Shown here one piece after another: positions 1 through 51,879 of a stretch of DNA of 64,000 bases. Origin of the DNA: Alphaproteobacteria bacterium 46_93_T64 (GTDB taxonomy: Bacteria > Pseudomonadota > Alphaproteobacteria > Sneathiellales > Sneathiellaceae); contig MAAN01000022.1 of assembly GCA_002163135.1 (NCBI GenBank), positions 124,001 to 188,000 on the forward strand, written 5' to 3'. How positions within the stretch are numbered: position 1 is the stretch's first letter; every line of letters begins with the position of its first letter. Below the pieces are notes generated by a model, which was not told where the DNA came from, did no database searches, and was given only the letters and a program-made list of their open reading frames with translations. A program made the translations under genes and the position numbers.

Positions 1-428
1 TCTTGGTTTATGTTTGGGTTCCCCTTCATTACCTTGCTTAAGTCCTGCATGTAAGAGTTGTCTATTTCGCCCTCAATTTTCGTTTCTGAAGGGAAGATTG
101 TCCAAGAAGCCATTCCATCAATACGCATTTGGGCGGTACCTATTGGAATGAAAGTTTTTGTGTTGCCAATAGTAATAGGAGGACGTGTCAGCCCAATGGA
201 TATTTCACCCTTCCTAATTTCCACAAGAGGGTAAATCGCGTTTGCCGTTCTCCAAGCAAAGCTATTACCTTGTTTGATATTCCATGTGGATATTTGGCAT
301 TTCGAAGAATCGTCGAAGGGATCTATTTTATTGCTAACGTGCCACTTGAACTCTGTCTGATTACCTGTCGTCTGGCAACCAACAAGTAAGAAACTCATAA
401 CTATCAGCGCAATTTTTCCACTATTCAC
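1..428 (-). CDS. Putative lipoprotein, C-terminus beyond window
   Basis: Open reading frame on the minus strand from a GTG at 428 to the left edge, about 142 residues without a stop, so the C-terminus is missing. The N-terminus is a typical lipoprotein signal: a lysine, a hydrophobic run and a lipobox LVGC with the cysteine at residue 18. An internal ATG at 396-398 would leave too short a signal, so GTG is preferred. The rest has many Trp, Ile and Asn residues and no recognised domain. Function unknown; predicted to be lipid-anchored in the cell envelope. Codon-level coherence on this strand makes the opposite-strand reading at 129-389 a shadow. Confidence 0.6.
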   Translation of the reverse strand, partial: MNSGKIALIVMSFLLVGCQTTGNQTEFKWHVSNKIDPFDDSSKCQISTWNIKQGNSFAWRTANAIYPLVEIRKGEISIGLTRPPITIGNTKTFIPIGTAQMRIDGMASWTIFPSETKIEGEIDNSYMQDLSKVMKGNPNINQ

Positions 429-741
429 TTTGATACTCCAATAGCAACTATTTGTTAGAAGTCCATGTTAGGCTGACTTGGTTAGCAAGCTCCTATTAGT
501 TGCATCATGAGAAGAATTTGGCTTGATTGCAATCTACTTTATGGCTTGTTGTAAAAAAAACATGCGAAACTCGAAGTTGCATAAATTGCGTGGCGTCATT
601 CTCCGTCAAATATGTGGAAGGTAGAGGGATATATTCAGAATATTCAATACCTAGTAGGATATTTTGATTAATCGAAAACCCAAAGGTGTATTGAAGGGAA
701 TAGTCCCGAAAAAATCAAGGCTGTGGATCCAATTTTAAAAT
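429..741. other. Divergent intergenic region
   Basis: AT-rich gap between the leftward lipoprotein gene and the rightward Sel1/ankyrin gene; it should hold both promoters. No convincing promoter pair, operator or small gene was recognised. Confidence 0.4.
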
Positions 742-2625
742 TTGACGGAAAAATTGAGCTCATTTAATCGGCTTTTAGAAAATAAGTCATTTGCTGCGAG
801 CAAGCAGAGCAAGTCTTCTTCACACGCAGAAAACATAATTGGTTTTTGGGATTTTGAAACTATTGGTAATAACAAAATTTCAGATGGGAACAAATGCAGC
901 CAATACGTGGAAGCGTTTTTTGCAGATGGAAAATATATCTATCTGGACAGGTATACGGATAAAAACGGCTTGAAAATGATTTTCATCAAAAGCGGCATCT
1001 ATACTTTGACGGACAAAAGTGTCGCCATCAAAGTAACGGCTGCTCAATTTATTCGAGACGGCGAACCCCAACCTAAAAAGAAAACAGAACAATATACAAA
1101 ACGGAAAATTAAAAATATTGCCACTGATACCTACTCAACTTCAGATACTGAAAAATACTACATAAGAGATTCAAAACGAGTGGAACGTAGAAAATTGTCA
1201 ATCGGTTGGGTGCGCTGTCGCGAAGTAGAAGTCTTATGGGCCTTGGAAAATGGAAATATTGGTGAAGCGTATTTCTCAACTGAAAATGACGACTTGAAAA
1301 AGGCGGTTACAGCTGAATCTCTTGGGAAAATGGCCGTATCCTCTTACGCTGTGAAAGATTACTCAAATGCCCGTATATGGGGAGAGAAGGCGGCTGAGAA
1401 AAATCAAGCTGAGGGTTATTGGGTGCTTGGAAAACTCCATTTTTCGGGAGCTGGAGGGTATAAATCCGATTATGTGGAGGCTGTTAAATGGCATAGAAAA
1501 GGCGCTGAGGCAGGACATCCAGGGTCTCAGAATGCTCTTGGCAATGCATATTACAGAGGACGTGGTGTGAAACGCGATAATTCTTTGTCCGTTGATTGGC
1601 ATGAAAAGGCGGCTGAGCAAGGGCTGGTATCTTCACAATTTTTCTTGGCGACGACGTTCTGGTATGGAGAGCCAGATATAGAAATTGATCTTGAAAAGTC
1701 GTTGTTGTGGTTTGAGAAAGTCATTTCATCAAATTCTGTAGATGCCAAAATGATGGAACGATCCAGAAAAAGTGTTAGGCATTTGAAAGACCAAATCAAA
1801 GAGGAAGCAGAAGAGTTAAAACTCGAGCTGGCAAGGAAGAAGCAACAAGAAGAAATCGATAAAGACGAATTTTGGACTGCGATAAGAACCAATGATTTCG
1901 GGTCTGCTACGAGACTAATTCGTGCAGGGAAGTCCCCTAATTCACTTTTGGGAGGTATTTCTTACGTTCATCGCACAGCGTCGTATGGTTCCCCGAAAAT
2001 GCTCGAATTTTTGTTAGCCAACGAAGGTGATGCTAATTCAATTCTCAAAGGTAAAACACCGCTTTTCCTCGCAGCTTCCAAGGGCAGAATTTCAAGCTTA
2101 GAAGTTTTGATTAAACATGGTGGTGATGTTCACGCGGAAATTAAATCGGGGATCAATATCTTATCATATGCGCTGGGTGGAGAAAATCTTGAAGTTGTCG
2201 AATATTTGTTGAAAAAAGGCGTTAAATTCACTCCTGAACTCAAAAAATACATTGATGAACTATTTAGAAAAAGACAAACGACAGGCTCCATCATTGTGCA
2301 ATCAAAAGCACTGACTGACTATGTTATTAAATACGGTCCAAAGCCGATGCATGCTGTTGATTATGAAAGATTTGCAAGTACCAATTTCGAAGAATTCGAT
2401 TCTGTTTATAAAGTGATGCAACATTTTAAAGGAAAACTGAATGCGGGTCAGGTCAATCGAGAACATCAGTTTTATATAACAGAGCTGGCAAAACAATGTG
2501 AAAGATTTATCGATATGACCATGGAAATGCATAACCGCAGACTTTGGTCAGCGCGTTTGGCAGAACAGTATTCATCCGAATGTTACCAAATGTATGAGAA
2601 GAATAAACGACTGTTCAAATCGTAA
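742..2625 (+). CDS. Sel1-repeat and ankyrin-repeat protein
   Basis: A 627-residue repeat protein of unknown function. Residues about 40-120 form an unrecognised N-terminal domain. About 180-330 carry Sel1-like (TPR-related) repeats with motifs such as AVKWHRKGAEAGHPGSQNAL and DWHEKAAEQG. A charged, likely coiled segment lies at about 340-385, and ankyrin-like repeats (GKTPLFLAASKG, EVLIKHGGDV) at about 390-500. The C-terminal 120 residues are unassigned. No signal peptide is visible, so it is probably cytoplasmic. Such repeats mediate protein-protein contacts. The start is TTG at 742, just after an in-frame stop at 736-738; the ribosome site is poor, so the true start may be a little downstream. 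It lies left of the first attachment-like repeat and may be cargo of a neighbouring island. Confidence 0.75.
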   Translation: MTEKLSSFNRLLENKSFAASKQSKSSSHAENIIGFWDFETIGNNKISDGNKCSQYVEAFFADGKYIYLDRYTDKNGLKMIFIKSGIYTLTDKSVAIKVTAAQFIRDGEPQPKKKTEQYTKRKIKNIATDTYSTSDTEKYYIRDSKRVERRKLSIGWVRCREVEVLWALENGNIGEAYFSTENDDLKKAVTAESLGKMAVSSYAVKDYSNARIWGEKAAEKNQAEGYWVLGKLHFSGAGGYKSDYVEAVKWHRKGAEAGHPGSQNALGNAYYRGRGVKRDNSLSVDWHEKAAEQGLVSSQFFLATTFWYGEPDIEIDLEKSLLWFEKVISSNSVDAKMMERSRKSVRHLKDQIKEEAEELKLELARKKQQEEIDKDEFWTAIRTNDFGSATRLIRAGKSPNSLLGGISYVHRTASYGSPKMLEFLLANEGDANSILKGKTPLFLAASKGRISSLEVLIKHGGDVHAEIKSGINILSYALGGENLEVVEYLLKKGVKFTPELKKYIDELFRKRQTTGSIIVQSKALTDYVIKYGPKPMHAVDYERFASTNFEEFDSVYKVMQHFKGKLNAGQVNREHQFYITELAKQCERFIDMTMEMHNRRLWSARLAEQYSSECYQMYEKNKRLFKS

Positions 2626-2643
2626 GTGTATGGTCTAGGAATT

Positions 2644-2700
2644 GCTCCTTCAAATCAATTTGATCAGTAAGTTCGGGATGTTGTACCGATGTGAAGGAGC
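2644..2700. repeat. 9-bp inverted repeat downstream of Sel1/ankyrin gene
   Basis: Perfect arms GCTCCTTCA (2644-2652) and TGAAGGAGC (2692-2700) with a 39-base spacer. There is no T-tract, so it is not a clear terminator. It sits between the gene end and the attachment-like repeat. Together with the repeat it accounts for the gap 2626-2991, which has no other visible gene. Confidence 0.35.
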
Positions 2701-2793
2701 TGTCGGCAGTACCGTATTATGCTGCGGATAGATCAGTGGATCGCTAAATATTCGAAAAAAGGATGCCAGTGAGGCCGGATTTTTTCAAATCTC

Positions 2794-2911
2794 TTGACGT
2801 GGTCCACTTTAGTGGTCCAAAATCGATTTTTTAGGGTTCGCAGTAAGTTTTTAAGTTATTGATATGTTTGAATAAATAAGAAATTTGGTTCGAATCCTAC
2901 CACCCCGACCA
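2794..2911 (+). repeat. 118-bp attachment-site-like direct repeat, copy 1
   Basis: The same 118-bp sequence occurs at 9667-9784, equal in length and close to 88% identical by eye. It opens with TTGACG and an imperfect hairpin (GGTCCACT, TT, AGTGGTCC), goes through an AT-rich middle, and ends in GGTTCGAATCCT plus an acceptor-like stretch and CCA. The end looks like the TPsiC loop, acceptor strand and CCA of a tRNA gene, but no D or anticodon arm precedes it. This is what a right-hand attachment site of an island integrated at a tRNA 3' end looks like (known biology of tyrosine integrases; the assignment is inference). Confidence 0.75.
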
Positions 2912-2991
2912 ACTATTTAAATTTGAGTGTTGGAATTGACAATTGTTTGGAGGTTTTTATCTTTCGTTGAATTTTCCGATAGGTATGACGA

Positions 2992-3273
2992 TCATTGAAG
3001 TTTCTTATATTTCTCAATCAATTCAACCGGATATTCTCTGCAATGGGTCGCGAGGTGCAAGATGGTTAGATGCTCCTCAAAATTCTTGTCAGCCCATGGA
3101 TTAGGGTCCAATTTGCATAACCAGTGGAAAAGGCCATCCGCAGTATACCAAGTTGTAGAAATGCTGTAGCCGAGTTTTGGCGTCATCGTAACTGCAATGA
3201 ATTTGCTTCGATCAACAACCTTCATAGCATTGAGCAGATTATAGAGCGGTGTTTTTGAAAACTTCTCATTCAT
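2992..3273 (-). CDS. Hypothetical small protein (93 residues)
   Basis: Start chosen at the ATG at 3271-3273 because GGAGAG lies four bases upstream; a longer reading to 3327 would bypass this site. The protein starts MNEKFSKTPLYNLL, has a tryptophan-rich middle (WYTADGLFHWLCKLDPNPW) and ends in a basic helix. No signal peptide or known domain. It is the last gene of the leftward island group, about 100 bases downstream of the DnaQ-like gene, so is probably co-transcribed with it. Function unknown. Confidence 0.6.
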   Translation of the reverse strand: MNEKFSKTPLYNLLNAMKVVDRSKFIAVTMTPKLGYSISTTWYTADGLFHWLCKLDPNPWADKNFEEHLTILHLATHCREYPVELIEKYKKLQ

Positions 3274-3372
3274 CTTACTCTCCGGTACCACGTTTAAACT
3301 CGAAGATGTTGCTGTTAATGAGATCACATCGGTTCTTTAGTGAAATGTGGTGGAGAGCTCGTGAGGTAATAT

Positions 3373-3927
3373 TTAGTCATCCAATCCTATTTTCAGTTTT
3401 TCCGAGGAAAGGCATTGATAAATTTTCGCCATTAAAAGTGCATCATGTAAACGTATGTTGGGTGGCATTGGTTGGTCGGTGATATCAAATCGGTTGAGTA
3501 AAGCCTCCAGACTAAGAGGTGTATCTGGAAACAGAGCTTTTGCCATTTCAAGGGTGTCAATCAATCGATGCTTTGGGATTGGTTTTCTGTTTTCACTCAG
3601 AAGGACAGCGTTGATAAAGCTAATATCAAACCAACCGTAATGTGAAACAATCGGATCCTCACCAATAAACACCATTAATTCGTCGAGGACATCAGTAATC
3701 ACCGGATGCCCGTTCACCTGAATATTATCAATACCGTGAACCGCTGTTGCAACAGCAGATATCAAAATTTGTGGATCAACGAGTGTATGAAAATTGCTCA
3801 CTGTAACTTCACGATCAAGTAATTCAATTGCTGAAAGGGAGACAATTTTATCGACGTCTGGCCTTACACCCGTTGTCTCAATTGAAATAACGACTTCTCT
3901 TGCCCTGTGGTTTCGTTTTCTTGACAT
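3373..3927 (-). CDS. DnaQ-like (DEDDh) exonuclease-fold protein, probably inactive
   Basis: A 184-residue protein with the layout of the epsilon-type 3'-5' exonuclease domain. Exo I reads VVISIETTG (12-20), where active enzymes have D-x-E: Ser15 replaces the first aspartate and Glu17 is kept. Exo II reads HYGWFDISF with Asp101 kept. Exo III reads LHDALLMAK: His161 is kept, but Met166 sits where the last metal-binding aspartate should be. Two of the four acidic ligands are therefore missing, and nuclease activity is unlikely. It may have become a nucleic-acid-binding or inhibitor subunit. It lies 73 bases downstream of the DUF2779 gene on the same strand, probably as one operon. Confidence 0.8.
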   Translation of the reverse strand: MSRKRNHRAREVVISIETTGVRPDVDKIVSLSAIELLDREVTVSNFHTLVDPQILISAVATAVHGIDNIQVNGHPVITDVLDELMVFIGEDPIVSHYGWFDISFINAVLLSENRKPIPKHRLIDTLEMAKALFPDTPLSLEALLNRFDITDQPMPPNIRLHDALLMAKIYQCLSSEKLKIGLDD

Positions 3928-4000
3928 TGCCTATGACCCTTTGGTGATGCCTGTGGGTTTCGAATAATCTGGGTTATCCAGAGTTGCAGATAACATTCCC

Positions 4001-5584
4001 TTAAGGCGATCCTGACTTATTCCACAAACCCTTATGAATAACGATCATGGCAATGGTGTCATACTGACAATAGGCCAGTAGCGTATCCCGTAAATCTTGT
4101 CGGTTCTCGTCTACGGCAAATTCACCGCTGACCAATCTGTAGAATGCCTCTGCAGCTGCATCACCTTTGGCAATACCTGTAAGGTTGGCATAATCAAATT
4201 CAGGATCGAAAGCGTTGGCGATAGTTTTAATACTATAGGTGCCACCACTCAGAGAGAGTGGTTTTTTGAAAAATTCAGGTAGACATGTATGTGAGCGCAC
4301 GACGGGGAGTAAGTCGCGCAGTCTGGGGAGAAGAGAAAGTAATTCTGCACTCCGCTCTGGGACACGCTTGGCGAGACTTTTAATCGCTGATTTTTCAGCA
4401 GTCGCATGATAGACGAGTATTGGATACTGATCTTTTCCAAGAATATCCAAGAGCTTTTCAGCGCATTCGCGAGACGGATCTACATCACCATCAGCCAGAT
4501 ATTCAAAATGGCTATTGGGCTTTGTTCCTTTGCCTAAAGATAAGCAATCAGAAACCGTAAGTTTTAAAAGCTCTTCTTTATTGCTGATAAAATGGCAGGA
4601 CCACTGAAATGCTATCAGTTCCGTTGGGGTCGTATTTTGGAAATATGGAAGTGTAGGTCGCGAAAATTCAAAATCTAGATAATGTGCAGGGGGCCCAAAG
4701 TCACTTAACGCATCTGGCAACCCCTTCGATATAAATTCTTTGCCGGTTTTATGGGTGTAATATTCGCGGGATTGATCAGCGGAGAGATCGTAATCCAAAG
4801 GTATATCCGCAGCAGAAACGACTCCAGAAATTTCGAGAGCACTGGCAACCTTCCAATTCATCCGATACAATCTATGAACCCAATCCAGAGGTTTACTTGC
4901 CGTACAATCCTCCCATTGTTCGCATGTGTATGGCTTGCTACATCTGTTTTTATTGGGCGCGACTTCCGGCGCTTCGTTTCCAGCCAGCATAGACCTTTGT
5001 TCTGCGAGTGCAGTGGCAACCAGATTTTGGCGAGCTAACACAGCCTCGGTTTGATCTTCGAGCACAAAATAGGTTTCCCAATCGATTGTGTTGGTTGTCT
5101 TTGTATATTCTTTGTTTATTCGCCCAACTTGGGCAGAGCGTATTTTTAGACCGCATTGGGTCAATACATAATATTGAAGGGCGGCGTCATTAACATGGTG
5201 GTCTTTGACCGTTGAGGCCGATTTGATTTCTATAAGGCTCCAAGAGCCATCTTCGTGTCTCTGCAATATATCGACGCGAATTCTGATGTTGTTATATTCA
5301 AACGCGGCTTCAAAAATCGCCGGAATTGCAGCGTTATCAATTGCGTTTTGAGTAGAGCGTAGCGCGGCCTCATGTTCAAAAGCGGCTTCTTCAATAAGAA
5401 TTCCGTCTGGAAACAAATTATGCGCGGCTTCTCCGATTTTTGAGCCAATGTGAAATCCGGAACCCGGGATAGGTTCTTGATAGTCAGTCTTTGAGTGACA
5501 TTCCAGCCAGAGCTTTTTATGGCATTGTAGTCCGGAGATAAACTTGGATTTGGTGAGATGTGGCTCTCTTATTTTTGTGAACAT
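4001..5584 (-). CDS. DUF2779 protein: Cas4-like nuclease fused to DEDD-type exonuclease fold
   Basis: A 527-residue protein opening with SKFISGLQCHKKLWL, typical of DUF2779. The N-terminal half has RecB/Cas4-type nuclease motifs: GEAAH (His55), Asp105 (RVDIL), Glu119 and Lys121 (LIEIKSA) and Gln137 (ALQYY). Cysteines 21, 215, 221 and 227 could bind an Fe-S cluster as in Cas4 and AddB. The C-terminal half has YLDFEF (Asp304, Glu306) and YCQYD (Tyr505, Asp509), which fits an RNase-H-like DEDDy exonuclease. A DNA-processing enzyme is likely, but its substrate is unknown. It heads the leftward group; its start is only 23-32 bases from the start of the divergent 94-residue gene. Confidence 0.85.
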   Translation of the reverse strand: MFTKIREPHLTKSKFISGLQCHKKLWLECHSKTDYQEPIPGSGFHIGSKIGEAAHNLFPDGILIEEAAFEHEAALRSTQNAIDNAAIPAIFEAAFEYNNIRIRVDILQRHEDGSWSLIEIKSASTVKDHHVNDAALQYYVLTQCGLKIRSAQVGRINKEYTKTTNTIDWETYFVLEDQTEAVLARQNLVATALAEQRSMLAGNEAPEVAPNKNRCSKPYTCEQWEDCTASKPLDWVHRLYRMNWKVASALEISGVVSAADIPLDYDLSADQSREYYTHKTGKEFISKGLPDALSDFGPPAHYLDFEFSRPTLPYFQNTTPTELIAFQWSCHFISNKEELLKLTVSDCLSLGKGTKPNSHFEYLADGDVDPSRECAEKLLDILGKDQYPILVYHATAEKSAIKSLAKRVPERSAELLSLLPRLRDLLPVVRSHTCLPEFFKKPLSLSGGTYSIKTIANAFDPEFDYANLTGIAKGDAAAEAFYRLVSGEFAVDENRQDLRDTLLAYCQYDTIAMIVIHKGLWNKSGSP

Positions 5585-5607
5585 ATCTACCCCTCTCGCT
5601 AGTAACT

Positions 5608-5892
5608 TTGTTTAAGGTGACGGTTGGCAATAATGAGTATTGGTCACATTATTTGAAATCTCACTCGTCATTAGCAAAATTTGTAACACTCCCTTGTGTC
5701 AATTACGGTCGCAGAGAGCTTGATGAAAGCATTGAGTATGGATGCGACCAAGTTTTCCACGAGGCCACAGCAGCAGTCAAAATTCCTTGTGGTTCACAAA
5801 AAATATATACGACCGTTATTGACGCACATGACCTTTACAAGGGTATATCAGAACACTACGTTCTAGGGATATTACTGCTAAAGGAGGAATAA
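5608..5892 (+). CDS. Hypothetical island protein (94 residues)
   Basis: Small protein of unknown function, first in the rightward group. Start is TTG at 5608 or GTG at 5617; neither has a strong ribosome site. It has three cysteines and several His and Tyr residues, with no signal peptide or membrane segment and no recognised domain. The stop at 5890-5892 is five bases before the start of the WYL regulator, and the regulator's ribosome site lies inside this gene, so the two are translationally linked. That coupling suggests it acts with the regulator. Confidence 0.6.
   Translation: MFKVTVGNNEYWSHYLKSHSSLAKFVTLPCVNYGRRELDESIEYGCDQVFHEATAAVKIPCGSQKIYTTVIDAHDLYKGISEHYVLGILLLKEE
5881..5887 (+). 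promoter_or_regulatory. Strong ribosome binding site fixing a TTG start
   Basis: AAGGAGG, ten bases upstream of the TTG at 5898. It overlaps the last codons of the preceding small gene, and supports the TTG as the true start of the WYL regulator. Confidence 0.7.
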
Positions 5893-5897
5893 ATACA

Positions 5898-7013
5898 TTG
5901 GGAAATAGATTTGATGGCTCAGTAGATTTACTTCTACTCATGCGAATGCTGGAGCGGCCGCAAGGTATTACACTATCGAAAATAATTGAAGAATTTGACG
6001 TTGGGCGGCGAACGGCCGAACGTATGATGTCTGCTGTAAAGCGGCTGGCTTCGTGGCAGGGTGTTGGTCATACAGCATCCGATTATCAAAATGGCGCTAT
6101 TTATCCTACCGACGTAGAAACAGATGACGGAGATGGTCGAAAAACACAACAAGCATGGCGATTGGACCCGGATTCACTCAATTCTTTAAAGCGTGAGAGC
6201 CTTTTCTTCGGTCGTGTCGTTAATGAAGAAAATACTATTGTTGCTCTTGATGCGGCCTTGCGGTTGTTGAAGAAAGAAAACCAAACCAGTTTTGTGAAAG
6301 ACTTGATGCGCTTGAAGGAAGAAATTCTGCGTTCAAAAAGTGAGACGGTGCATTCTAATATCGAATACGCTGCAGAGTTATTGGAGTTTTCAACACGTCC
6401 GGGCCCGAAGAAAGACACGCCGCCGGAAACCTTGGCAAATTTGGTCCGCGCTATAAGTGCATGGAAAGAAATTTCCTTTGTCTACTCTGACCCATGGCAT
6501 GGCACAACCACCAGAGAGACGTTCCAGCCTTATGGGATTATCAACGGAGAACATCACTACATTGTTGGCAAAGTTAAGGGGACGGATAAAATTGAACGCA
6601 GGAGAATGCCGAAGGTATCGGATCTAAATGTCCTAGAGACTACCTTCACAAAGGATGGCGATTTTGATCTGAAAAAATATGCCGACCAATCCTTCGGAAC
6701 GTATCAAGAGGAACCCGCAATTAGGGTGAAATGGAAAATTCTGCCGAAGAAGAAACTTGGCGATCCAACAACACAATTCGGGTCATCGCCGAAAGGGGCT
6801 GAAGATGCTGCCGCTTACAAGTTTCACCCAACGCAGAAGCCATTGGTCCTTTTGGAGGACGGTAGCGTTATCGTTGAATTTGAGGCTAAAGGCACGATTG
6901 AAATGTGCTGGCACCTGTTTACTTGGGGGGATCGTATTGAAATTATTGAACCTGCGTCACTGCGGGAGACTTATTCAGATTTATTGAGTGCCGCGTTAGC
7001 GAACCACAAGTAA
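5898..7013 (+). CDS. WYL-domain transcriptional regulator
   Basis: A 371-residue regulator. The N-terminus (about 5-55) is a winged helix-turn-helix: LSKIIEEFDVGRRTAERMM. A middle segment links to a WYL domain at about 180-250 with FVYSDPWHGTT, then PYGIINGEHHYIVGK and RRRMPKVSDL, which fits the family pattern of an arginine- and tyrosine-rich ligand pocket. A C-terminal WCX-like extension ends with a tryptophan-containing stretch (CWHLFTWGDRIEI). WYL proteins sense nucleic-acid or nucleotide ligands and control defence loci. It sits between a small gene and a nuclease gene on the same strand, probably controlling the divergent island operons. Confidence 0.88.
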   Translation: MGNRFDGSVDLLLLMRMLERPQGITLSKIIEEFDVGRRTAERMMSAVKRLASWQGVGHTASDYQNGAIYPTDVETDDGDGRKTQQAWRLDPDSLNSLKRESLFFGRVVNEENTIVALDAALRLLKKENQTSFVKDLMRLKEEILRSKSETVHSNIEYAAELLEFSTRPGPKKDTPPETLANLVRAISAWKEISFVYSDPWHGTTTRETFQPYGIINGEHHYIVGKVKGTDKIERRRMPKVSDLNVLETTFTKDGDFDLKKYADQSFGTYQEEPAIRVKWKILPKKKLGDPTTQFGSSPKGAEDAAAYKFHPTQKPLVLLEDGSVIVEFEAKGTIEMCWHLFTWGDRIEIIEPASLRETYSDLLSAALANHK

Positions 7014-7093
7014 TAAGAGATTAACTTTAGATGTGTATTGAGCATGGGTGGCTTTATGAGAATTCTAAACAATTATATTCGGAAAGGTAACCA

Positions 7094-8590
7094 ATGACTG
7101 ACTTGAATGAATGGGCTGAAGGCACAGATTTTAGAGAATTTGTTGATCATTTCGGATATCGACCTTCACTTAGTGTTTATGGGTGCGATCGAATTGAAGA
7201 CACTCATAGCGATTTTTTCGCGTGGTTACTTGATCCGGCTGAAAATCATAATCTTGGGAACCAACCCCTCATTCAATTTTTATTGGCGTTAAAAAAATTG
7301 AGTCCGGAGAACGAAGGCGCACATGAAAAACTAGCCAAACTCAATGAAGGCCGATTGGTATTATCAAATGAATTTTTGGGTAGCTTAAAGGAACCTGCCA
7401 CTAGCATTTCAAATGTTGATGTGAAGAGGGAGTTTCAAGACGCTTGGAATGGTAATGTTAGAAATTCTGTACGCCCTGATATTCTTCTTACGGCAGAAAT
7501 CAACCAGACGAAATTTGTTCTGATTCTCGAAAACAAAATCTACAGCACAGAAGGCGAAGATCAAACTGTTGATTATTTTGACTGGGCTAAGAATAAATAT
7601 CCTGAAGCGACAATATTATGCGTTTACGTCAATCCTTATCTAAACAAAAAACTTGCTGACTTAAGTAAGAATCCGTTTTCTTCAAATGATTTCATATTCA
7701 TTACCTACCAATTTTTGTTAGATAATTGGCTGAAGGCATTCGGTGAAAGTAACCATAAGAATGTACAGATCGATGATTACATTCGAAGCCTTAAAAATCG
7801 CTCTCTCACCAATCGCTCCAAAAACAGAAAAAATGTTGCATTAGCCATATCGCAGCTGGATAGAGACGTTTGCAAAACATTCTTGGAGAAATCGAAGAAA
7901 CAATTGCTCCGAGTTAGGGATGCATTGAGGTCCGATGATACAGAGATACCAAGCTTAGTTCACAAGATTATGCCAATTTTACAGGAGATAATCCCGAATT
8001 CTGATCTAGAACAAGACGGTTTCAGAGTCATTGAGGTTCGTAAAGGAACGGATCCTTGGAACGAAAAAAATGTCGCCGCGGGGCATCTAGCTGAAGGTGT
8101 AGCGACTGAATTGAATGCATTAGAAGCAGTCAATAGAGAGGTGTCCTTTGTTGGAGGCGCAACCTACAGATATATTATTCCAGCAGGGGATCCGCTATTG
8201 GGGCGTGGGATAATAAAATGGGGTTTTCGCAATATCGGTGCACAAATTGGATTTTGGATTAGCCCAAGATTTCAAGTGGAAGGTAGCAAAGCCTATCGCG
8301 GTAATTTTGAAGAAGTCTTTAGTGTTCTAGAAAATTTGACACGTGAAATAAACGAAAAACACAACCAAGCATATATCTGCAGAGAAAGGCCATTTGCGGA
8401 GAGAGTTGATCAACAAGAACATCCTTCAATTTTCGTCTACTCGACAATTAAGAGAGATGATGCTTCCGCAGGAATAGTCAGTAGCGAGCTAATAAAAATG
8501 GCAGAATATTTTGTTCCAGAAATGATACGAGACATTGCGACGGAAGGACAGTCGAAAACTTTGTTTGATCCGTTTGTGGAAGCTATTTAG
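7094..8590 (+). CDS. PD-(D/E)XK nuclease superfamily protein
   Basis: A 498-residue protein with the signature of the PD-(D/E)XK group often annotated PDDEXK_4. The N-terminus has E35-x2-H38-S-D followed by WLLDP. The catalytic core reads RPDILL (Asp129), LILENK (Glu146, Lys148) and EDQT (Gln157). The C-terminal 250 residues have no recognised domain and may specify target or partner. GGAAAGG lies upstream of the ATG. It follows the WYL regulator by 80 bases on the same strand. Family members occur in defence islands and restriction-like systems; the target here is unknown. Confidence 0.85.
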   Translation: MTDLNEWAEGTDFREFVDHFGYRPSLSVYGCDRIEDTHSDFFAWLLDPAENHNLGNQPLIQFLLALKKLSPENEGAHEKLAKLNEGRLVLSNEFLGSLKEPATSISNVDVKREFQDAWNGNVRNSVRPDILLTAEINQTKFVLILENKIYSTEGEDQTVDYFDWAKNKYPEATILCVYVNPYLNKKLADLSKNPFSSNDFIFITYQFLLDNWLKAFGESNHKNVQIDDYIRSLKNRSLTNRSKNRKNVALAISQLDRDVCKTFLEKSKKQLLRVRDALRSDDTEIPSLVHKIMPILQEIIPNSDLEQDGFRVIEVRKGTDPWNEKNVAAGHLAEGVATELNALEAVNREVSFVGGATYRYIIPAGDPLLGRGIIKWGFRNIGAQIGFWISPRFQVEGSKAYRGNFEEVFSVLENLTREINEKHNQAYICRERPFAERVDQQEHPSIFVYSTIKRDDASAGIVSSELIKMAEYFVPEMIRDIATEGQSKTLFDPFVEAI

Positions 8591-8738
8591 CCCTTAAATC
8601 GACAATGGAATAGTTGCAACTGAGTGAGACTAATAGCTTTCAAGAGATGCTTCTCTATTTTGAATTAGCAAGGGCAAAAATATTCACAATGACCTTATTT
8701 TTTTTATCTATCTATCAATGTTAAATCGAGAAAAATAC

Positions 8739-9003
8739 ATGAGTAAGGCACTAATTGATCTGATGAACGATATTGTAGAATGCGATGAAGTGACAGAACA
8801 TATGCGCAGTTTGCAATTTGAAGATCGGCCCCCCTCTATTTGCAGCTGATCCACTGTTCCAAGCAAAGATAGAAGGTTATCGTGAAAGCCACACATTACA
8901 TCATCTAGCCGGAAAAATAGTAACGGCAAGAATGAGTTTCCTCGGCTTTGAAAAACTAAAGGGTCGTACGAGGCGGGCAAAGAAGCAGATGGTTGTGCGG
9001 TAA
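8739..9003 (+). pseudogene. Small island gene broken by a frameshift at a C-run
   Basis: ATG at 8739 reads 36 codons (MSKALIDLMNDIVECDEVTE and on) and stops at the TGA at 8847-8849. Removing one C from the six-C run at about 8827-8832 would give one frame of about 87 residues ending at the TAA at 9001-9003, with a very basic tail (RTRRAKKQMVVR). Both parts have coding-like composition, so this is probably one gene with a one-base insertion, a sequencing error or a programmed slip. No family recognised. Confidence 0.5.
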
Positions 9004-9131
9004 AAAGCGGCGTTACTTTCGTTAAACGTAAAGAAATTAAATATCACGATTAGGCGGTTAAACAATAATGTGCGACCGGTTCTGCCGCTGCCGGAATGTA
9101 TAGATCATCTCATAAACAAAGAGGATCAATC

Positions 9132-9248
9132 ATGGCTACTCAAGGAAAGAAGAAAACTTATAATTTGAGCAACGGAAAAAAAATTCCGGCCCGGGGTTTC
9201 AAAAAGAAGCCGGCAGGCAGACCGATGCCGAAGCGCAAGCGAAAATAG
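9132..9248 (+). CDS. Very basic 38-residue peptide with AT-hook-like tail
   Basis: ATG at 9132 preceded at six bases by AGAGGA. The 38-residue product has about 15 Lys/Arg and few acidic residues. The C-terminal segment PAGRPMPKRKRK resembles an AT-hook (a GRP core flanked by basic residues), and RGFKKK precedes it. It probably binds nucleic acid. It is easily missed because of its length. It lies in the island between the frameshifted gene and the 93-residue gene. Confidence 0.55.
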   Translation: MATQGKKKTYNLSNGKKIPARGFKKKPAGRPMPKRKRK

Positions 9249-9342
9249 AAAGGTGACGCCCATCAATTCAGGTGTGATGGCTGGAACCTTTCACCCGAAC
9301 CCAAAATGAGATGACAGCATGCAAACTGTCTTATGTTGAGGA

Positions 9343-9624
9343 ATGGATAGAGTAATGAGCAAATTTGATGATGTGGGCTTTCCTGAGGGTGCAACTGAAT
9401 ATTCAATTGCATTGACGAATTCTGGAAGTGTTTTTTCTTATTGGCTGGAATCCAAAACGTTTGGTCAAAGCGAAGAGACTGATAAAGCTGTCGCCTTCTC
9501 AGAGCCTAAAGATGCATACGAAACGATACAGACATACAATCTAAATGCAAAGGCCCAAGACACGGGAGTTTTGCAAATAGTGGAAACACCTAATAAGGAA
9601 ATAGACTCCAAAAATTCTGTTTGA
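9343..9624 (+). CDS. Hypothetical island protein (93 residues)
   Basis: Acidic small protein with no signal peptide or recognised domain. Start at 9343 (GAGGA directly before the ATG) or the ATG at 9355, which has better spacing. It has a Tyr/Phe-rich middle (GSVFSYWLESKTFG) and a polar C-terminus. It is the last gene before the right attachment-like repeat, 42 bases from it. Terminal island genes often travel with the attachment site. Function unknown. Confidence 0.55.
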   Translation: MDRVMSKFDDVGFPEGATEYSIALTNSGSVFSYWLESKTFGQSEETDKAVAFSEPKDAYETIQTYNLNAKAQDTGVLQIVETPNKEIDSKNSV

Positions 9625-9666
9625 CGATAACCTAATTCAATTATCTTTTGTTCTCATAAAAATACA

Positions 9667-9784
9667 TTGACGTGGTCCACTTTAGTGGTCCAAAATCGGT
9701 TTTTTAAGGTTCGCAGTCAGTTTTTAAGTTATTGATATATATAAGAAAATACGAAATTTGGTTCGAATCCTGCCACCCCAGCCA
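9667..9784 (+). repeat. 118-bp attachment-site-like direct repeat, copy 2 (right end of island)
   Basis: Second copy of the repeat at 2794-2911, with the same length, hairpin, AT-rich middle and tRNA 3'-end-like terminus (GGTTCGAATCCTGCC then acceptor-like bases and CCA). Differences cluster in the middle and in two bases of the acceptor-like part (CAGCCA here, CGACCA in copy 1). DNA to the right looks like ordinary chromosome, so this is probably the outer boundary of the islands. Confidence 0.75.
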
Positions 9785-9870
9785 TTTTCCTACAGACTAT
9801 ATTCAAGCCTTGTCATTTTATTCTAATAGCTTGTCTTATGCGGGCTGACAAAACGTATTGTCGGTAACAT

Positions 9871-9894
9871 CAAAATCCGCCGAAGCGGATTTTG
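9871..9894. terminator. Perfect 10-bp hairpin, possible bidirectional terminator
   Basis: CAAAATCCGC, loop CGAA, GCGGATTTTG. A short T-run follows on both strands. It lies downstream of the leftward hydroxylase gene and just right of the island end. Confidence 0.5.
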
Positions 9895-9941
9895 TGCCGG
9901 GTGAATTCATTAAAATAGAAATATATTTTTCTTCAGCTCTT

Positions 9942-10700
9942 TTATTTTACGTTGGTTGTTGCTTCGAAACGCTCCAAGTATTCTGGATGTTCAGTGCCCA
10001 TCAACCGATCCCACCAAGTAAAGTAGAGACCGAAGTTCCATCTAGCGTTTTGATGATGCAGGTCGTGGTGGGTTACACTCGTTATCCATCCGAAGTAGCG
10101 GCTACGAGGCATACTGGCTGGGAATAACTCGTATCCCGAATGACCCATGACGTTTCGTATCACCATATGAAGGCTCCAAATTAGCAAGGCTACTGGATGA
10201 ATTGGAATGAAAAGAGCAAATAAGGGGGCAAAGGCCACTTGAATGACAGCTTCAATTGGATCGAAACTATAAGCTGTCCATGGCGTTGTCACACGTGATC
10301 TATGATGCAATAGATGGGTGACGCGTAACACCGACGGAATATGCATCAAGCGATGGGTCCAATAAAAATATCCATCATGAGCCACGATCATCACTAATAG
10401 GCTTAACAAGAGATACGCCCACCCATAATCAGATATGTCTGTGTAGATTTTGTTTATGCCAAGGGTAGCAAGACCCATTATACCAAGCATGCTGACACTG
10501 GCGAAAATGGTAGCTGATAGTAAGGACCAGCCAATTTCGCGAAAAATTTGACGACGGTTAGTTTGAGTGATCTGAATTTTTCGGCTGCTTAGAGCCTTTG
10601 CAAGCACTACTCGTGTTACAAAGAATACGGCTCCCGCCGGAATTAGGTATTTGAGTATGTCATGGCTGACGAAACCCACCCAAGTGGAGAAATCAAACAT
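9942..10700 (-). CDS. Sterol desaturase / fatty acid hydroxylase family membrane protein
   Basis: A 252-residue integral membrane protein with several hydrophobic spans and the histidine boxes of the di-iron hydroxylase superfamily: HRLMH, HLLHH and HHDLHH. Family members hydroxylate or desaturate sterols, fatty acids or carotenoid-like lipids using O2; the substrate here is unknown. Its start overlaps the end of the upstream methyltransferase gene by 8 bases, so the two are one operon and may modify the same lipid. Confidence 0.85.
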   Translation of the reverse strand: MFDFSTWVGFVSHDILKYLIPAGAVFFVTRVVLAKALSSRKIQITQTNRRQIFREIGWSLLSATIFASVSMLGIMGLATLGINKIYTDISDYGWAYLLLSLLVMIVAHDGYFYWTHRLMHIPSVLRVTHLLHHRSRVTTPWTAYSFDPIEAVIQVAFAPLFALFIPIHPVALLIWSLHMVIRNVMGHSGYELFPASMPRSRYFGWITSVTHHDLHHQNARWNFGLYFTWWDRLMGTEHPEYLERFEATTNVK

Positions 10701-11343
10701 GTGCTTCTCCCCCTGTCAGGGTTTTGCTGGCAGTTATCCAGTACATTATGTGTCCTGAAATATTCTGCTTTTGAAGCCTTACTTGACGGAACCCACATTG
10801 TCTAAGCAGTGCATCAATCTTTGCTGCTGTTCGCAAGTTGTAAATTGATGCAGGGAATTTTTCAGCAAAGGCAGCATCATCGCCTGATCTGAAGCCAAGG
10901 ACAAACTGGCCGCCTGGGGTTAGAACACGCAGAATTTCTTGCAGGTGTATTTCCGGATTTTGCCAAAAATAGATAGTATGAACTGAATAGATTTTATTAA
11001 AACCGTCATTCAAATAGGGAAGATTGGCACTGTCTCCTTTGTCAATTTTCACGTGGCCTGAGGTTATAAGCTTTCTATTACGGCGACGAGCAACGTTGAG
11101 CATAACATCGGAGAAATCAATGCCAGTGACTGATAGATTTACGCACCGCTTAGCAGCACTCCGTAGTGTTTCTCCATGCCCACATCCCACTTCTAGTATC
11201 TTGTCGTTGGGTTTCATTTCCAACAAATTGAGAGTTTGAACGTTTTCTGGTTCCGTTTCACTTGCCATAATGAAGGCGACAAGATAGCCCAAGAGACCTG
11301 AAGGTCGTCGTCCCTGACGCGCAATAAACTCGGGTTTACGCAT
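10693..11343 (-). CDS. Class I SAM-dependent methyltransferase
   Basis: A 216-residue protein with a Rossmann-fold methyltransferase core: motif I ILEVGCGHGET, then GIDFSDVML and an FNKIYSVHTIYFWQ segment with RVLTPGGQFVLGF, like the Methyltransf_11 family (UbiE-type small-molecule methyltransferases). It overlaps the downstream hydroxylase gene by 8 bases. Substrate unknown; a lipid or small hydrophobic molecule is plausible from the neighbour. Confidence 0.85.
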   Translation of the reverse strand: MRKPEFIARQGRRPSGLLGYLVAFIMASETEPENVQTLNLLEMKPNDKILEVGCGHGETLRSAAKRCVNLSVTGIDFSDVMLNVARRRNRKLITSGHVKIDKGDSANLPYLNDGFNKIYSVHTIYFWQNPEIHLQEILRVLTPGGQFVLGFRSGDDAAFAEKFPASIYNLRTAAKIDALLRQCGFRQVRLQKQNISGHIMYWITASKTLTGGEAHV

Positions 11344-11587
11344 AATGAACTCCTCCGGTCAGAATGGAGAGAACGCTATATATGCGAATAAATTTGTATC
11401 GCTGAAAATCACGATTTTTGGCCATGTCAATACTCCCTAATTATTTCAATCGGGCGGAAAGTAATTCCCGCGGCGACAAATAGAGAGTTAGCTTGATCCT
11501 TGATTGCGGTCTTATCGATCCCGGATAAACTATAGTCGATTTCGAAATCAGCTATGTTTTGTAGTGATTTTGGTTAGTTGTTGTTCT

Positions 11588-12649
11588 TTATAACGCCAAT
11601 TTTTGTGCACGGTATTCTTTTGGCGTTACACCAGTTTGTTCTTTAAATGCGCGGTTGAAGGGGCCAAGTGACGAATATCCGCAATCCATGGCCAAAGTTA
11701 AGATAGGCATTTTCACAAGCTCTGGATTGGATAGCTTCGTTTGAATTTCTGTAATTCTATGAAAATTTAGGAATTCGTTGAAATTGCGATACCCCAATTC
11801 ACCGTTGATAAGTCTACGTAGAAGATATTCCTGTGTATCCAATTCTGCTGCCAGCTGTCCGATGGACAAGCCTTCTTGACGATATATGAAGCGGGCTTCA
11901 ATAAGTTGCTTCAAATTTCTTTTCTGTTTCTCCATCTCTGGGTCTGTTGGAGATGAGATTGCTGAAGATTTCTTAAATGCAAATACGGGCTCTAATCCTG
12001 ATTTTAGCTGTGTCATCATGATAGCAAAAACGAATGAAAGGAGGAAAATAGCCGCTATATTGATAAGCTCTAAAGTTTGTGGTGCGGTTTGATCTCTTAA
12101 GACAATTTCGACGACGAGTACGATGAGGATATAACCACCGCAAACACCAACAAACACATCGCGAAACTTCCGTCTTGATTCAACTAAATCACTAGCCTTT
12201 CCTTTTCTCGCGAGCACGAGAGCTGATACCGTAATCCCTAGTGAGAGAATTTGATGTAATGCGAGTGATACTGTCTCTGAGTTAAAAGCCACATTTGTGT
12301 CAGAATTCATACTTTCGGCATATCGGTGCCAAAACCCCAAAGCAATCATAATGACAAGCAAGACAGCGTTCCAGGGGCGCAGTTGAAACTGGTCATCAAA
12401 AATTGCCCGAGACATCAGAAAGAAAAATACTGCAGCACTATAGCAGCCAATAAAAAAGGGAACTTCAATAATACCTAATTGCCATTCACGAACCATTGGC
12501 GGGCATAGTAGATATGAGGCAATGCTAAAGCAAAAAAGAGCGACCAATATTCCAAGTTGTTTTCCATGTACATCTCGTAACCATAAAACAGCAATAAAGG
12601 CGAGGGCCGTGACACCGGAAAAACGTATCGCTATTTCAACAGTGCTCAT
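11588..12649 (-). CDS. Membrane-bound AraC-family transcriptional regulator
   Basis: A 353-residue protein. About seven hydrophobic spans fill residues 5-215 (for example ALAFIAVLWL, FFIGCYSAAVFFFLM). A C-terminal AraC helix-turn-helix pair lies at about 250-350 (LSIGQLAAELDTQEYLLRRL; LTLAMDCGYSSLGPFNRAFK, then TGVTPKEYR). It probably senses a membrane or outside signal and regulates nearby genes. It ends 244 bases before the hydroxylase operon on the same strand and diverges from the peptide-synthetase genes, so either could be a target (inference). Confidence 0.85.
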   Translation of the reverse strand: MSTVEIAIRFSGVTALAFIAVLWLRDVHGKQLGILVALFCFSIASYLLCPPMVREWQLGIIEVPFFIGCYSAAVFFFLMSRAIFDDQFQLRPWNAVLLVIMIALGFWHRYAESMNSDTNVAFNSETVSLALHQILSLGITVSALVLARKGKASDLVESRRKFRDVFVGVCGGYILIVLVVEIVLRDQTAPQTLELINIAAIFLLSFVFAIMMTQLKSGLEPVFAFKKSSAISSPTDPEMEKQKRNLKQLIEARFIYRQEGLSIGQLAAELDTQEYLLRRLINGELGYRNFNEFLNFHRITEIQTKLSNPELVKMPILTLAMDCGYSSLGPFNRAFKEQTGVTPKEYRAQKLAL

Positions 12650-12902
12650 ACTTGTATACCTTGATTAAGTTTCAGTTCCATCAAACGCAGCCCTTTATCA
12701 CATTACGTGCTGGTTTCTTCTTATGTTAAACAGGATGTCATCGATGGGAAAGAGAACTCTTGGTGCGTTATTAGGAATTCTTTTGTGCGATTACGGTGCG
12801 TTGCAACAAAAAATAACATTCATCTCGACTTTCCGATATTTTGAAACATAAGATAAACCGAATAAATCCGCACGTGATCTTGGTGGTCTCATCGGGAGGC
12901 CA

Positions 12903-14033
12903 TTGCCAGAAGGATGGAACGAGGAGAAGGACGGCTTGAAAAAATCAGACGATGGTGCGATGCCAGACGACGGAACTACAGACAAAGCGAAAGAATTTGA
13001 AGGGTGCAGTGACCTTGAGATTGCCCTTGCCACTTGCTGGAAAAGATGCCTGAATGTTGATGGTCTTTTGTTCTCCGCCAGCTTTCTCGATCTGGGTGGC
13101 ACGCCGGCCCTTGCTAAATCTCTGGCGATGGATATTGAGCAGGCAACAGGCCAAACACTGGATCCTGAAACGGTTCTACAGCTGGAAAATTTTGGCGCGT
13201 TGAGTACTATTATCAGTGCACCAGAAATTCCGCTAAGAGATCTGATAGTTACCTTTCAGGAGGGATCACAAAAGACAGCATTGATCTGCGTTCATGGCAT
13301 TACTTACTACCGGGAAATTTCCACAATATCGTCCCCTGATACGCCGGTTTACGGGTTGCTAGCGAAAGAGCATCAGGCGCTTGTTTCAACCGTTGGTGAG
13401 GGTCAGGACCAAGAGGTCGATCTGGATCGTCTCATTGAAACCTATTACACCATGATCCGTAATCTGCAGCCAAAAGGCCCCTATCAATTGATAGGCCATT
13501 CCTTCGGCGGGGTGATTGCTTTTGAAATCGCAAAGCGGCTCAGAAATGAAGGGGAAGCTGTTGACAAACTGTTTCTCATTGATGCGCTGCTGAAAGATCC
13601 GTTTTATCCTTATATGGTTCAAAAAATCGTGAAATTATTTCGCTTGATCCGGCAAGGGAATTGGGGTGATCTGGGACGGATCATGAGACGGGTAGGGAGC
13701 AAATTCATGCGCTTCGGCCGCCATTGGCAATACCGTGTGAGCCCTTCGAAACTGAGCCCCTCAAGTCCCGCTCTGGCGGAAAGAGTTACGGGGAAATATC
13801 GGCAGGTCATGCATGGCTATATTCCGGCGAAGGGCGTGTATGACAGCCCTGTGATCCTTATACGGGCACATAAAACACGCACTCTCAGCGCAAATAGAGA
13901 TGATTATGGCTGGCAGCCGTTGATTGGCCCACCAGTAGAGTTTATCGACCTGCCAGGGACGCATTTGACATGCGTTGTGCAACCGAACATCAACAATTTG
14001 GAGCGTTATTTCGCGAAAAATACATCTGTCTGA
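12903..14033 (+). CDS. Stand-alone carrier-thioesterase protein with degraded carrier site
   Basis: A 376-residue paralogue of the C-terminal part of the peptide synthetase at 15071-19339. Residues about 35-110 match a carrier (T) domain but read FLDLGGTP at the attachment motif: Pro68 replaces the serine that takes the phosphopantetheine arm. Residues about 120-375 form an alpha/beta-hydrolase thioesterase with GHSFGG (Ser200). Start TTG at 12903 follows GGGAGG by only three bases. The frame is open upstream to a stop at 12849 and reads like coding, so this may be the 3' remnant of a larger synthetase. It may act as a type II (editing) thioesterase. Confidence 0.8.
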   Translation: MPEGWNEEKDGLKKSDDGAMPDDGTTDKAKEFEGCSDLEIALATCWKRCLNVDGLLFSASFLDLGGTPALAKSLAMDIEQATGQTLDPETVLQLENFGALSTIISAPEIPLRDLIVTFQEGSQKTALICVHGITYYREISTISSPDTPVYGLLAKEHQALVSTVGEGQDQEVDLDRLIETYYTMIRNLQPKGPYQLIGHSFGGVIAFEIAKRLRNEGEAVDKLFLIDALLKDPFYPYMVQKIVKLFRLIRQGNWGDLGRIMRRVGSKFMRFGRHWQYRVSPSKLSPSSPALAERVTGKYRQVMHGYIPAKGVYDSPVILIRAHKTRTLSANRDDYGWQPLIGPPVEFIDLPGTHLTCVVQPNINNLERYFAKNTSV

Positions 14034-14038
14034 AATCT

Positions 14039-14065
14039 GTATTTCCTTTTTTGGAAACGAAATAC
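14039..14065. other. Hairpin downstream of carrier-thioesterase gene
   Basis: Arms GTATTTC and GAAATAC with a nested TTTCC...GGAAA. No T-run follows, so it may be a weak terminator or an mRNA-stability element between this gene and the next. Confidence 0.3.
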
Positions 14066-14132
14066 AAGATTACTTCATGATAATTATATAATTAGATAAA
14101 TCGCATCTTGTTATGAGGGTTTTGTCTGATAT

Positions 14133-15047
14133 ATGCTTAAAAACAAGACAATTGCTAGGACGTTGCCTGAGTATTGTCGGTTTATGGTTGATTGTCACCG
14201 TTCAGCCCTTCACTGTGATTGTTTGTTGGCGAAAAAGAAATGTATGGAATCACAGGCTAAAACGCAGACTGAGAAAGACGTGTTCAAGACGCTCTCGCCG
14301 GACACGGCTCATATCTGGCATTTTGACCTCAGGCAATATGTTGCTAGTGGTTTCTCCAGCATACTGTCGGCGGATGAGGCCGAGAGAGCTGAAAATTTTC
14401 GTTTTCGAAAAGATGAACTTTCTTACCGTTTTCGTAGAAGCATTTTACGGTCACTTTTGTCGGGATATCTAGAATGTCGGCCGGAGGACATTTCGTTCAC
14501 CTATGGACCGCAGGGAAAACCAGGTGTCTGCACCGAGGAAAGTCGCCAACGGATACAGTTTAACATGTCGACCAGCGACGGAATTTGTGTGTTGGTTTTC
14601 TCAACCAACACCGTCGTCGGCATTGACGTTGAAAAAATCCTACCCTTGAAAGATTGTGAACAGCTTTTACAGATTTTTGCCACTGACCGTGAACAGCGCC
14701 ATCTGCATCATCTTCATCGGACTGAAAGACTGAGCGAATTCTATCGATTATGGACGATCAAGGAAGCCGTCCTGAAGTCGGTGGGTTGCGGATTTTCAAC
14801 TCCTGGAACATCCGTGGCTGTGCCGCCAGGGGGACTGGCACATGTAACAAACGAGGTCGAAATTGGACCGCAGAACGCCAAAAAACACAGGTATTTTAGG
14901 CAGCTGGATCTTGGCGCAGGGCTCTCTGCAGCTGTTGCCTCCGACCAGTCTTTACTGCACTTGCAATATTTTGACGGATTGGAGTACGGGGCGCTAGTGG
15001 ATATTCAGTTAGGTGTGCAGGGCTTGATGAACAGAAGCATTAGATAG
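14133..15047 (+). CDS. 4'-phosphopantetheinyl transferase (Sfp/EntD type)
   Basis: Transfers the phosphopantetheine arm of CoA to the serine of carrier domains, here probably those of the next gene. Motifs: FNMSTSDG, GIDVEK (Mg-binding Asp and Glu) and FYRLWTIKEAVLK (the WxxKEA signature). The reading from ATG 14133 gives 304 residues with a 37-residue cysteine-rich leader; the ATG at 14244 starts at MESQAKTQTE, closer to family length. The true start is uncertain. It lies 23 bases upstream of the synthetase on the same strand, in the same operon. Confidence 0.9.
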   Translation: MLKNKTIARTLPEYCRFMVDCHRSALHCDCLLAKKKCMESQAKTQTEKDVFKTLSPDTAHIWHFDLRQYVASGFSSILSADEAERAENFRFRKDELSYRFRRSILRSLLSGYLECRPEDISFTYGPQGKPGVCTEESRQRIQFNMSTSDGICVLVFSTNTVVGIDVEKILPLKDCEQLLQIFATDREQRHLHHLHRTERLSEFYRLWTIKEAVLKSVGCGFSTPGTSVAVPPGGLAHVTNEVEIGPQNAKKHRYFRQLDLGAGLSAAVASDQSLLHLQYFDGLEYGALVDIQLGVQGLMNRSIR

Positions 15048-15070
15048 GCCAGAGAAGGGATCCGAAAAAA

Positions 15071-51671: not shown

Positions 51672-51805
51672 AGTAGCGTAAATAGTACCGAGTAGTATCA
51701 AGTACCCAGTAGTAGCGTAAATAGTACCGAGTAGTATCAAGTACCCAGTAGTAGCGTAAATAGTACCGAGTAGTATCAAGTACCCAGTAGTATCAAGTAC
51801 CCAGT
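51672..51805. repeat. 39-bp tandem repeat (VNTR-like)
   Basis: Three near-identical units start at 51672, 51711 and 51750, followed by a partial fourth of 17 bases at 51789. Each unit holds AGTAGCGTAA, ATAGTACC, AGTATCAA and CCCAGT, itself made of smaller AGTA-type repeats. Non-coding. Could vary in copy number. Confidence 0.9.
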
Positions 51806-51879
51806 AGTTGAATAATTAGTAGTAGTATGTATCCTAATACCCCACTGGAATGTTCCATATTTCCAGATGATATTATGAT

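What the first reader, a model, noticed from the sequence alone, without database searches (positions are those of the whole stretch)
2992..9624. Candidate defence system: WYL regulator, Cas4-like fusion, inactive DnaQ-like protein and PD-(D/E)XK nuclease
Seen: two divergent groups, one with a DUF2779 nuclease fusion plus a DnaQ-like protein, the other with a small protein coupled to a WYL regulator and a PD-(D/E)XK nuclease, all in one mobile island. Known: WYL regulators and these nucleases are frequent in defence islands. Inference: this combination may be an uncharacterised anti-phage module. I do not recognise it as any named system.
Basis: partly seen in the sequence, partly recalled or inferred. 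Interest (0 to 1): 0.82.

Follow-up and report, generated by a model that had tools for sequence, protein, structure and literature searches.

The report
Mobile WYL-controlled nuclease cassette
A small piece of mobile DNA in a bacterium carries two nuclease genes and a regulator related to one that senses single-stranded DNA, which suggests, without proving, a nuclease response switched on by foreign or damaged DNA.

Summary
The genes are there, and two of the proposed nuclease sites (D105/E119 and D129/E146) are intact. They lie in a 6.87-kb unit between copies of a tRNA-Gln 3' end, behind a 17.5-kb integrase-bearing element. The WYL protein (F) resembles Caulobacter DriD, an ssDNA-activated transcription activator, and has the same recognition-helix motif. 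DUF2779 nucleases like D recur beside F-like WYL genes (16 of 53 loci), 14 of these 16 with a double-AAA ATPase that this element lacks. The full set of four families was found in none of 103 other loci surveyed. A DriD-like operator matrix made from the ATPase genes' upstream regions scores 5807-5827, before F, highest in 104 kb; weaker sites precede D and a 38-aa ORF. At the lowest score of a held-out site the element has 3 hits against 0.015 with permuted matrices. I read it as an ssDNA-inducible nuclease module: control of F-G likely, control of D and the 38-aa ORF inferred, defence untested. A genome-wide pattern test was circular and is not used. Novelty: a new variant of WYL-regulated nuclease modules.

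The parts
2787..2911 (+). left boundary repeat, ends in a diverged tRNA-Gln 3' end (2887-2911)
   Evidence: 125-nt direct repeat, 88% to 9660-9784; tRNA-end pattern
2992..3327 (-). B, 111 aa, unknown
   Evidence: ORF; coding-like codon use; plasmid matches in 135 records, best E 4e-3
3373..3927 (-). C, DnaQ-like, predicted catalytically inactive
4001..5584 (-). D, Cas4-like PD-(D/E)XK plus DUF2779 (RNase H-like) nuclease
   Evidence: family placement from PMC3985635 passages
5608..5892 (+). E, 94-aa ORF; gene or chance frame across a two-way promoter region, undecided
5694..5714 (-). weak DriD-like operator candidate, 130 nt before D
   Evidence: 15.9 bits, fourth in 104 kb
5807..5827 (+). DriD-like operator candidate, 91 nt before F
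   Evidence: 23.2 bits, best in 104 kb; 16/21 to didA and 17/21 to driD sites
5898..7013 (+). F, DriD-like WYL/WCX regulator
7094..8590 (+). G, PDDEXK_4 nuclease
9070..9090 (+). DriD-like operator candidate, 62 nt before the 38-aa ORF
   Evidence: 17.6 bits, second in 104 kb
9132..9248 (+). 38-aa very basic ORF
   Evidence: sequence; codon use not clearly coding
9343..9624 (+). H, 93 aa, unknown
   Evidence: ORF; coding-like codon use
9660..9784 (+). right boundary repeat, ends in a tRNA-Gln 3' end (9760-9784)

Best explanation
A mobile, tRNA-Gln-inserted cassette with an inducible nuclease response. F is a DriD-type WYL activator: ssDNA made during phage replication, plasmid entry or damage binds its WYL domain, F binds a DriD-like operator at 5807 and turns on F and G, and probably also D-C-B (operator 5694) and the 38-aa ORF with H (operator 9070). 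D (Cas4-like plus 3'-5' exonuclease-like) and G (PD-(D/E)XK) then degrade DNA; C is a non-catalytic partner. Shown by sequence: gene content, intact motifs of D and G, loss in C, boundaries, recurrent WYL-DUF2779 linkage, an operator family tied to F-like WYLs. Likely: control of F-G. Inferred: ssDNA sensing, control of D and of the 38-aa ORF, nuclease activity, defence.
For: F's best solved relatives are DriD structures (9pfq E 2.3e-28, 8tp8 E 5.4e-28) with the same VGRRTAERM motif. DriD is ssDNA-activated and activates an operon divergent from its own gene (PMC12340889, passages and section 6). D relatives: F-like WYL in 16 of 53 loci, double AAA in 14 of 53, all 14 with WYL; no AAA2 hit without a WYL in any of 103 surveyed loci. 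Of the 6 closest D relatives (37-41%) 5 have a WYL; the sixth, L041, has 2.3 kb upstream and 10 kb downstream held and none. AAA2 genes: 14 of 22 have a site of at least 14/21 to didA/driD upstream, 1.83 expected. F-like WYL genes: 13 of 58 have a consensus site of 10/14 or more upstream, 4.6 expected; 5 of 11/14 or more, 1.0 expected. Matrix test: loci with WYL that gave no site to the matrix, 20 hits in 658 kb, 0.4 expected with permuted matrices; loci without WYL, 6 in 859 kb, 0.6 expected. Element: 3 hits at the lowest held-out score, permuted mean 0.015, at most 1 in 200 permutations.
Against: 26 of 53 WYL loci have no operator hit at the quartile threshold, among them L010 and L043. Only 5807 passes that threshold in the element; 5694 is outranked by a site outside it (L004:14745). 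With 1000 permuted matrices the element held the best site 55 times (its share of the DNA is about 66), two or more of the top three 9 times, all three once; the real matrix gives two of the top three. D genes in general show little operator excess (3 of 22 with WYL against 1.8 expected; 5 of 48 without against 3.1). The plain DriD consensus is not significant in the window (3 hits, 1.4 expected, 19 of 100 shuffles as many), and 36 of 300 shuffled 64-kb windows hold a 16/21 match to the didA site. The genome-wide pattern was written from the window sites and gave 5 matches against 6 for its backwards control. The matrix excludes the window, but this path was chosen after the 5807 site was seen, and the scores were known before the threshold rule was set. 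Loci are not all independent (L089 resembles L062 and L063). F is a long branch of unresolved place. The second Arg of the WYL pair is Lys in F (alignment). The AAA partner is absent.
Confidence: 0.5

Rival explanations
1. F is a repressor, as BrxR and CapW are, which keeps toxic nucleases off until a ligand releases it.
For: BrxR represses (PMC9122601 passages); PMC11804915 passages speak of WYL repressors linked to immune systems; CapW from the search listing only. An operator over the -35 region could also block.
Against: F's closest solved relatives are the activator DriD, whose sites also overlap the -35 region.
Confidence: 0.25
2. The cassette is a DNA-repair or damage-response module of the mobile element, not defence.
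For: DriD is a damage-response regulator (PMC4211646 passages); that Cas4/RecB-like and DnaQ-like proteins also serve repair is general knowledge.
Against: Rare genes: D in 11 of 385 class genomes at E 1e-20, G in 1 of 385 at 1e-5, F in 1 of 25 family genomes at 1e-10, the window's own genome counted each time.
Confidence: 0.2
3. The two gene groups are unrelated cargo that share an island by chance; D-C-B and F-G act apart.
For: The four-family set is in none of 103 other surveyed loci; the site before D is weak and D genes show little operator excess.
Against: WYL beside D in 16 of 53 loci and, in L044, one site between D and a divergent operon that holds the WYL gene.
Confidence: 0.25

Closest known systems
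DriD of Caulobacter crescentus
   Same: WYL/WCX regulator, same recognition-helix motif, similar operator
   Different: the DriD targets named in the passages seen (didA, bapE, dnaG, recJ, an operon with a TonB-dependent transporter) are not an adjacent nuclease cassette; ssDNA binding of F is untested
Unnamed double-AAA + WYL + DUF2779 gene set (14 of 53 D loci here)
   Same: WYL and DUF2779 genes, operator type
   Different: this element lacks the AAA gene and has G and C
TM0106-family nuclease divergent from a WYL gene (plasmids L010, L094, L095, L096)
   Same: WYL gene divergent from a PD-(D/E)XK plus RNase H-like nuclease
   Different: the TM0106/COG2251 family often has tandem AAA domains (PMC3985635 passages); of 52 plasmid records 6 were looked at, 4 had this pair
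PADLOC candidate PDC-S26
   Same: G matches its models at up to 3.1e-19
   Different: the matched stretches lie in about the first 250 of 498 residues; what PDC-S26 does is not described in the papers searched

Membership tests
DriD-like WYL activators | wHTH, WYL and WCX domains in one chain | tested here: met
   Pfam WCX 4.6e-10; WYL 0.0004, 20.8 bits, just under its cut-off of 21.8; HTH_11 only 0.074; two-part alignment to DriD covering the N-terminal motif and the core
DriD-like WYL activators | DriD-type DNA site before a controlled gene | tested here: inconclusive
   5807 strong, 9070 and 5694 weaker; path not blind
DriD-like WYL activators | activation by ssDNA | not testable with these tools
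   needs binding assays
double-AAA + WYL + DUF2779 set | AAA gene present | tested here: not met
   no AAA2 hit among ORFs of window 1-16000
Cas4 of CRISPR-Cas | CRISPR-cas neighbours | tested here: inconclusive
   PADLOC scan of 8 ORFs gives weak Cas4 and Cas1g matches for D, WYL and Cas3c (5.7e-9) for F, DEDDh for C; no Rfam match in 1-12000; no dedicated CRISPR-array search was made
active DEDDh exonuclease (C) | four acidic residues and His | tested here: not met
   S15 and N157

The most novel reading that the evidence does not exclude
A self-contained mobile regulon: one DriD-like, ssDNA-sensing WYL protein carried by the element drives all three of its transcription units, so that two nucleases and a basic peptide are made only when ssDNA appears, with an inactive DnaQ-fold protein as targeting partner at replication forks.
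Probability: 0.2. Interest if true: 0.8.

Novelty: new variant of a known kind. Interest (0 to 1): 0.6.

Why it matters
It links uncharacterised DUF2779 nucleases, found here in records from several bacterial phyla and one archaeon, to a regulator family whose trigger is known, and gives a short, testable operator by which such modules can be found and their induction measured.

Tried and rejected
Rejected or corrected. (1) The genome-wide pattern was built from the window's own sites and gave 5 matches against 6 for its backwards control: no evidence. (2) The 15.85-bit cut-off was set to take in the weakest window site; its '0 of 1000' is not used. The 25 loci listed there were picked by me; L010, L033, L043 and L130 had no hit. 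(3) In a note I wrote that the top three of 104 kb all lie in the element; one search shows the third is L004:14745, which one search had already listed. (4) In one search the window site counts under both D and WYL. (5) A -10 element first put at offset 15 was moved to offset 7-10 after seeing the AAA2 promoters; T9A10 in 26 of 50 sites, and in all three window sites, is after the fact. (6) My note on the last motif of C was wrong; D162 is kept, N157 replaces His. The PDX4, DNAQ and AAA2 profiles were built from some of the loci that they then match; independent support is blastp and Pfam. Led nowhere: G in plasmids, no match; G in viral contigs, none confirmed; two partial phage matches of 24.7% and 23.4% identity; D in phages, no match; inverted repeats at 5540-5920, none; sigma-70 scan no better than shuffles, 17 against 16.1. 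Literature: nine searches by DUF2779, TM0106, PDDEXK_4, PDC-S26 and WYL terms; their listings showed no description of this set. Subscription papers are mostly not held.

Full report
Place and boundaries. The window is C11:124001-188000 of its genome. A tRNA-Gln gene lies at C11:109301-109375. Its 3' end is repeated at window 2887-2911 (diverged) and 9760-9784, inside a 125-nt repeat 88% alike. So a 17.5-kb element with an integrase next to the tRNA is followed by a 6.87-kb unit that holds the finding; no integrase was seen in that unit. In the relative G016 the stretch from the tRNA to the fatty-acid-hydroxylase gene is 3.2 kb, here 24.6 kb. At E 1e-10 F is absent from the other 24 family genomes searched.

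Genes. D joins a Cas4-like domain to DUF2779; PMC3985635 (passages seen) places DUF2779 among RNase H-like presumed 3'-5' exonucleases and notes the DUF83 fusion. In 36 sequences (D and 35 homologues) the residues D105, E119, K121, D304, E306, D509 and three cysteines are invariant. C keeps E17, D101 and D162 but has S15 and N157; the genome has another DnaQ-like gene, 35% alike. G matches PDDEXK_4 and PADLOC PDC-S26. B, E and H have no family in Pfam, PADLOC or PHROGs; H has one NCBIfam match at E 0.1. Codon use is coding-like for B, E and H, not clearly for the 38-aa ORF.

Neighbourhoods. One genome-contig scan gave 53 D loci; some are near-copies, and L071, L074 and L083 are contigs also seen under G handles. 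An F-like WYL is present in 16 of 53, a double-AAA gene in 14 of 53, always with the WYL; L062, L063 and L089 have AAA, WYL and D in a row. In the class search D is in 11 of 385 genomes, 12 places, of which 2 (the window and L033) have an F-like WYL in the stretch held; F is in 27 of 385, 38 places, and G in 1 of 385. PDDEXK_4 with WYL is in L010 and in the near-copies L142 and L144; DnaQ-like proteins with WYL in the near-copies L058 and L059 and in L135. Of 52 plasmid records with an F-like WYL I looked at six, not drawn at random; four (L010, L094, L095, L096) have a TM0106 nuclease divergent from the WYL.

Regulator. F's solved relatives are DriD. PMC12340889, a preprint (passages and section 6 seen), reports ssDNA-triggered activation, a site over the -35 region, and control of a divergent operon. 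F keeps the helix motif and the WYL Tyr; of the Arg pair that PafBC needs (PMC11804915 passages) the second is Lys in F.

Operators. The consensus alone is not significant in the window. The site at 5807 is 16/21 to didA (2 of 5000 shuffles of the D-F interval, but 36 of 300 shuffled 64-kb windows hold one somewhere) and 17/21 to driD. Upstream of AAA2 genes such sites are frequent: 14 of 22 at 14/21 or more, 1.83 expected, 10 of these 14 at 64-70 nt from the start. A matrix of 12 AAA2 sites was then tested with thresholds from leave-one-out scores, all 103 surveyed loci kept, permuted matrices as control: loci with WYL that gave no site, 20 hits in 658 kb (0.4 expected), in 14 of 40 loci; loci without WYL, 6 in 859 kb (0.6 expected), in 4 of 50; the 13 loci that gave sites have 19 hits by construction. 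In 104 kb around the element the ranking is 5807 (23.2), 9070 (17.6), L004:14745 (16.6), 5694 (15.9). At the lowest held-out score (13.0) the element has 3 of the 7 hits in 104 kb; permuted matrices give 0.015 in the element on average. At the quartile score (18.4) only 5807 remains, and none at the median (24.0). The scores had been seen before this rule was set. I take the tie between this operator type and F-like WYLs as well supported, control of F-G as likely, and control of D and the 38-aa ORF as inferred. Results against this reading are given in the Against line and Tried and rejected.

Novelty. The 2023 PADLOC library has no model for D beyond weak Cas4 matches, and the nine literature searches listed no description of the set. 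Parts and regulator type are known; the combination is a variant. Defence remains an inference from family associations (PMC9122601 and PMC5704561, passages).

Noticed in passing
L004:5409-7167: The integrase beside tRNA-Gln is read in two overlapping frames, so it may be broken.
   Followed up: no
L004:19021-19650: A second, 209-aa tyrosine recombinase near the far end of the larger element (PHROG integrase).
   Followed up: partly
L004:8466-9080: Weak match to a phage terminase small subunit in the larger element.
   Followed up: no
window 742-2625: Sel1-repeat and ankyrin-repeat protein just outside the unit, in the larger element.
   Followed up: no
window 8739-9003: An open stretch that continues in another frame; possibly a broken gene.
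   Followed up: no
G000:C33:237204-237896: A second F-like WYL gene in the same genome; no operator hit in its 20-kb locus L040.
   Followed up: partly
L048, L051, L053, L060, L072, L077, L079 and others: A ~260-aa protein (cluster c3), PD-(D/E)XK-like by eye, directly before DUF2779 genes; 13 loci hold it; no Pfam or PADLOC match for the one tested, L060.
   Followed up: partly
L012, L068, L080, L086: DriD-like operator hits in loci where no F-like WYL was detected.
   Followed up: no
window 25909-26544 and 51672-51809: Direct repeat arrays of 168-nt and 39-nt spacing.
   Followed up: no
L011 and L013: DUF2779 genes in other multi-gene contexts: with helicase-type genes and dGTPase (Aliarcobacter), with helicase, ATP-binding protein and phospholipase D family protein (Planktothrix).
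   Followed up: no
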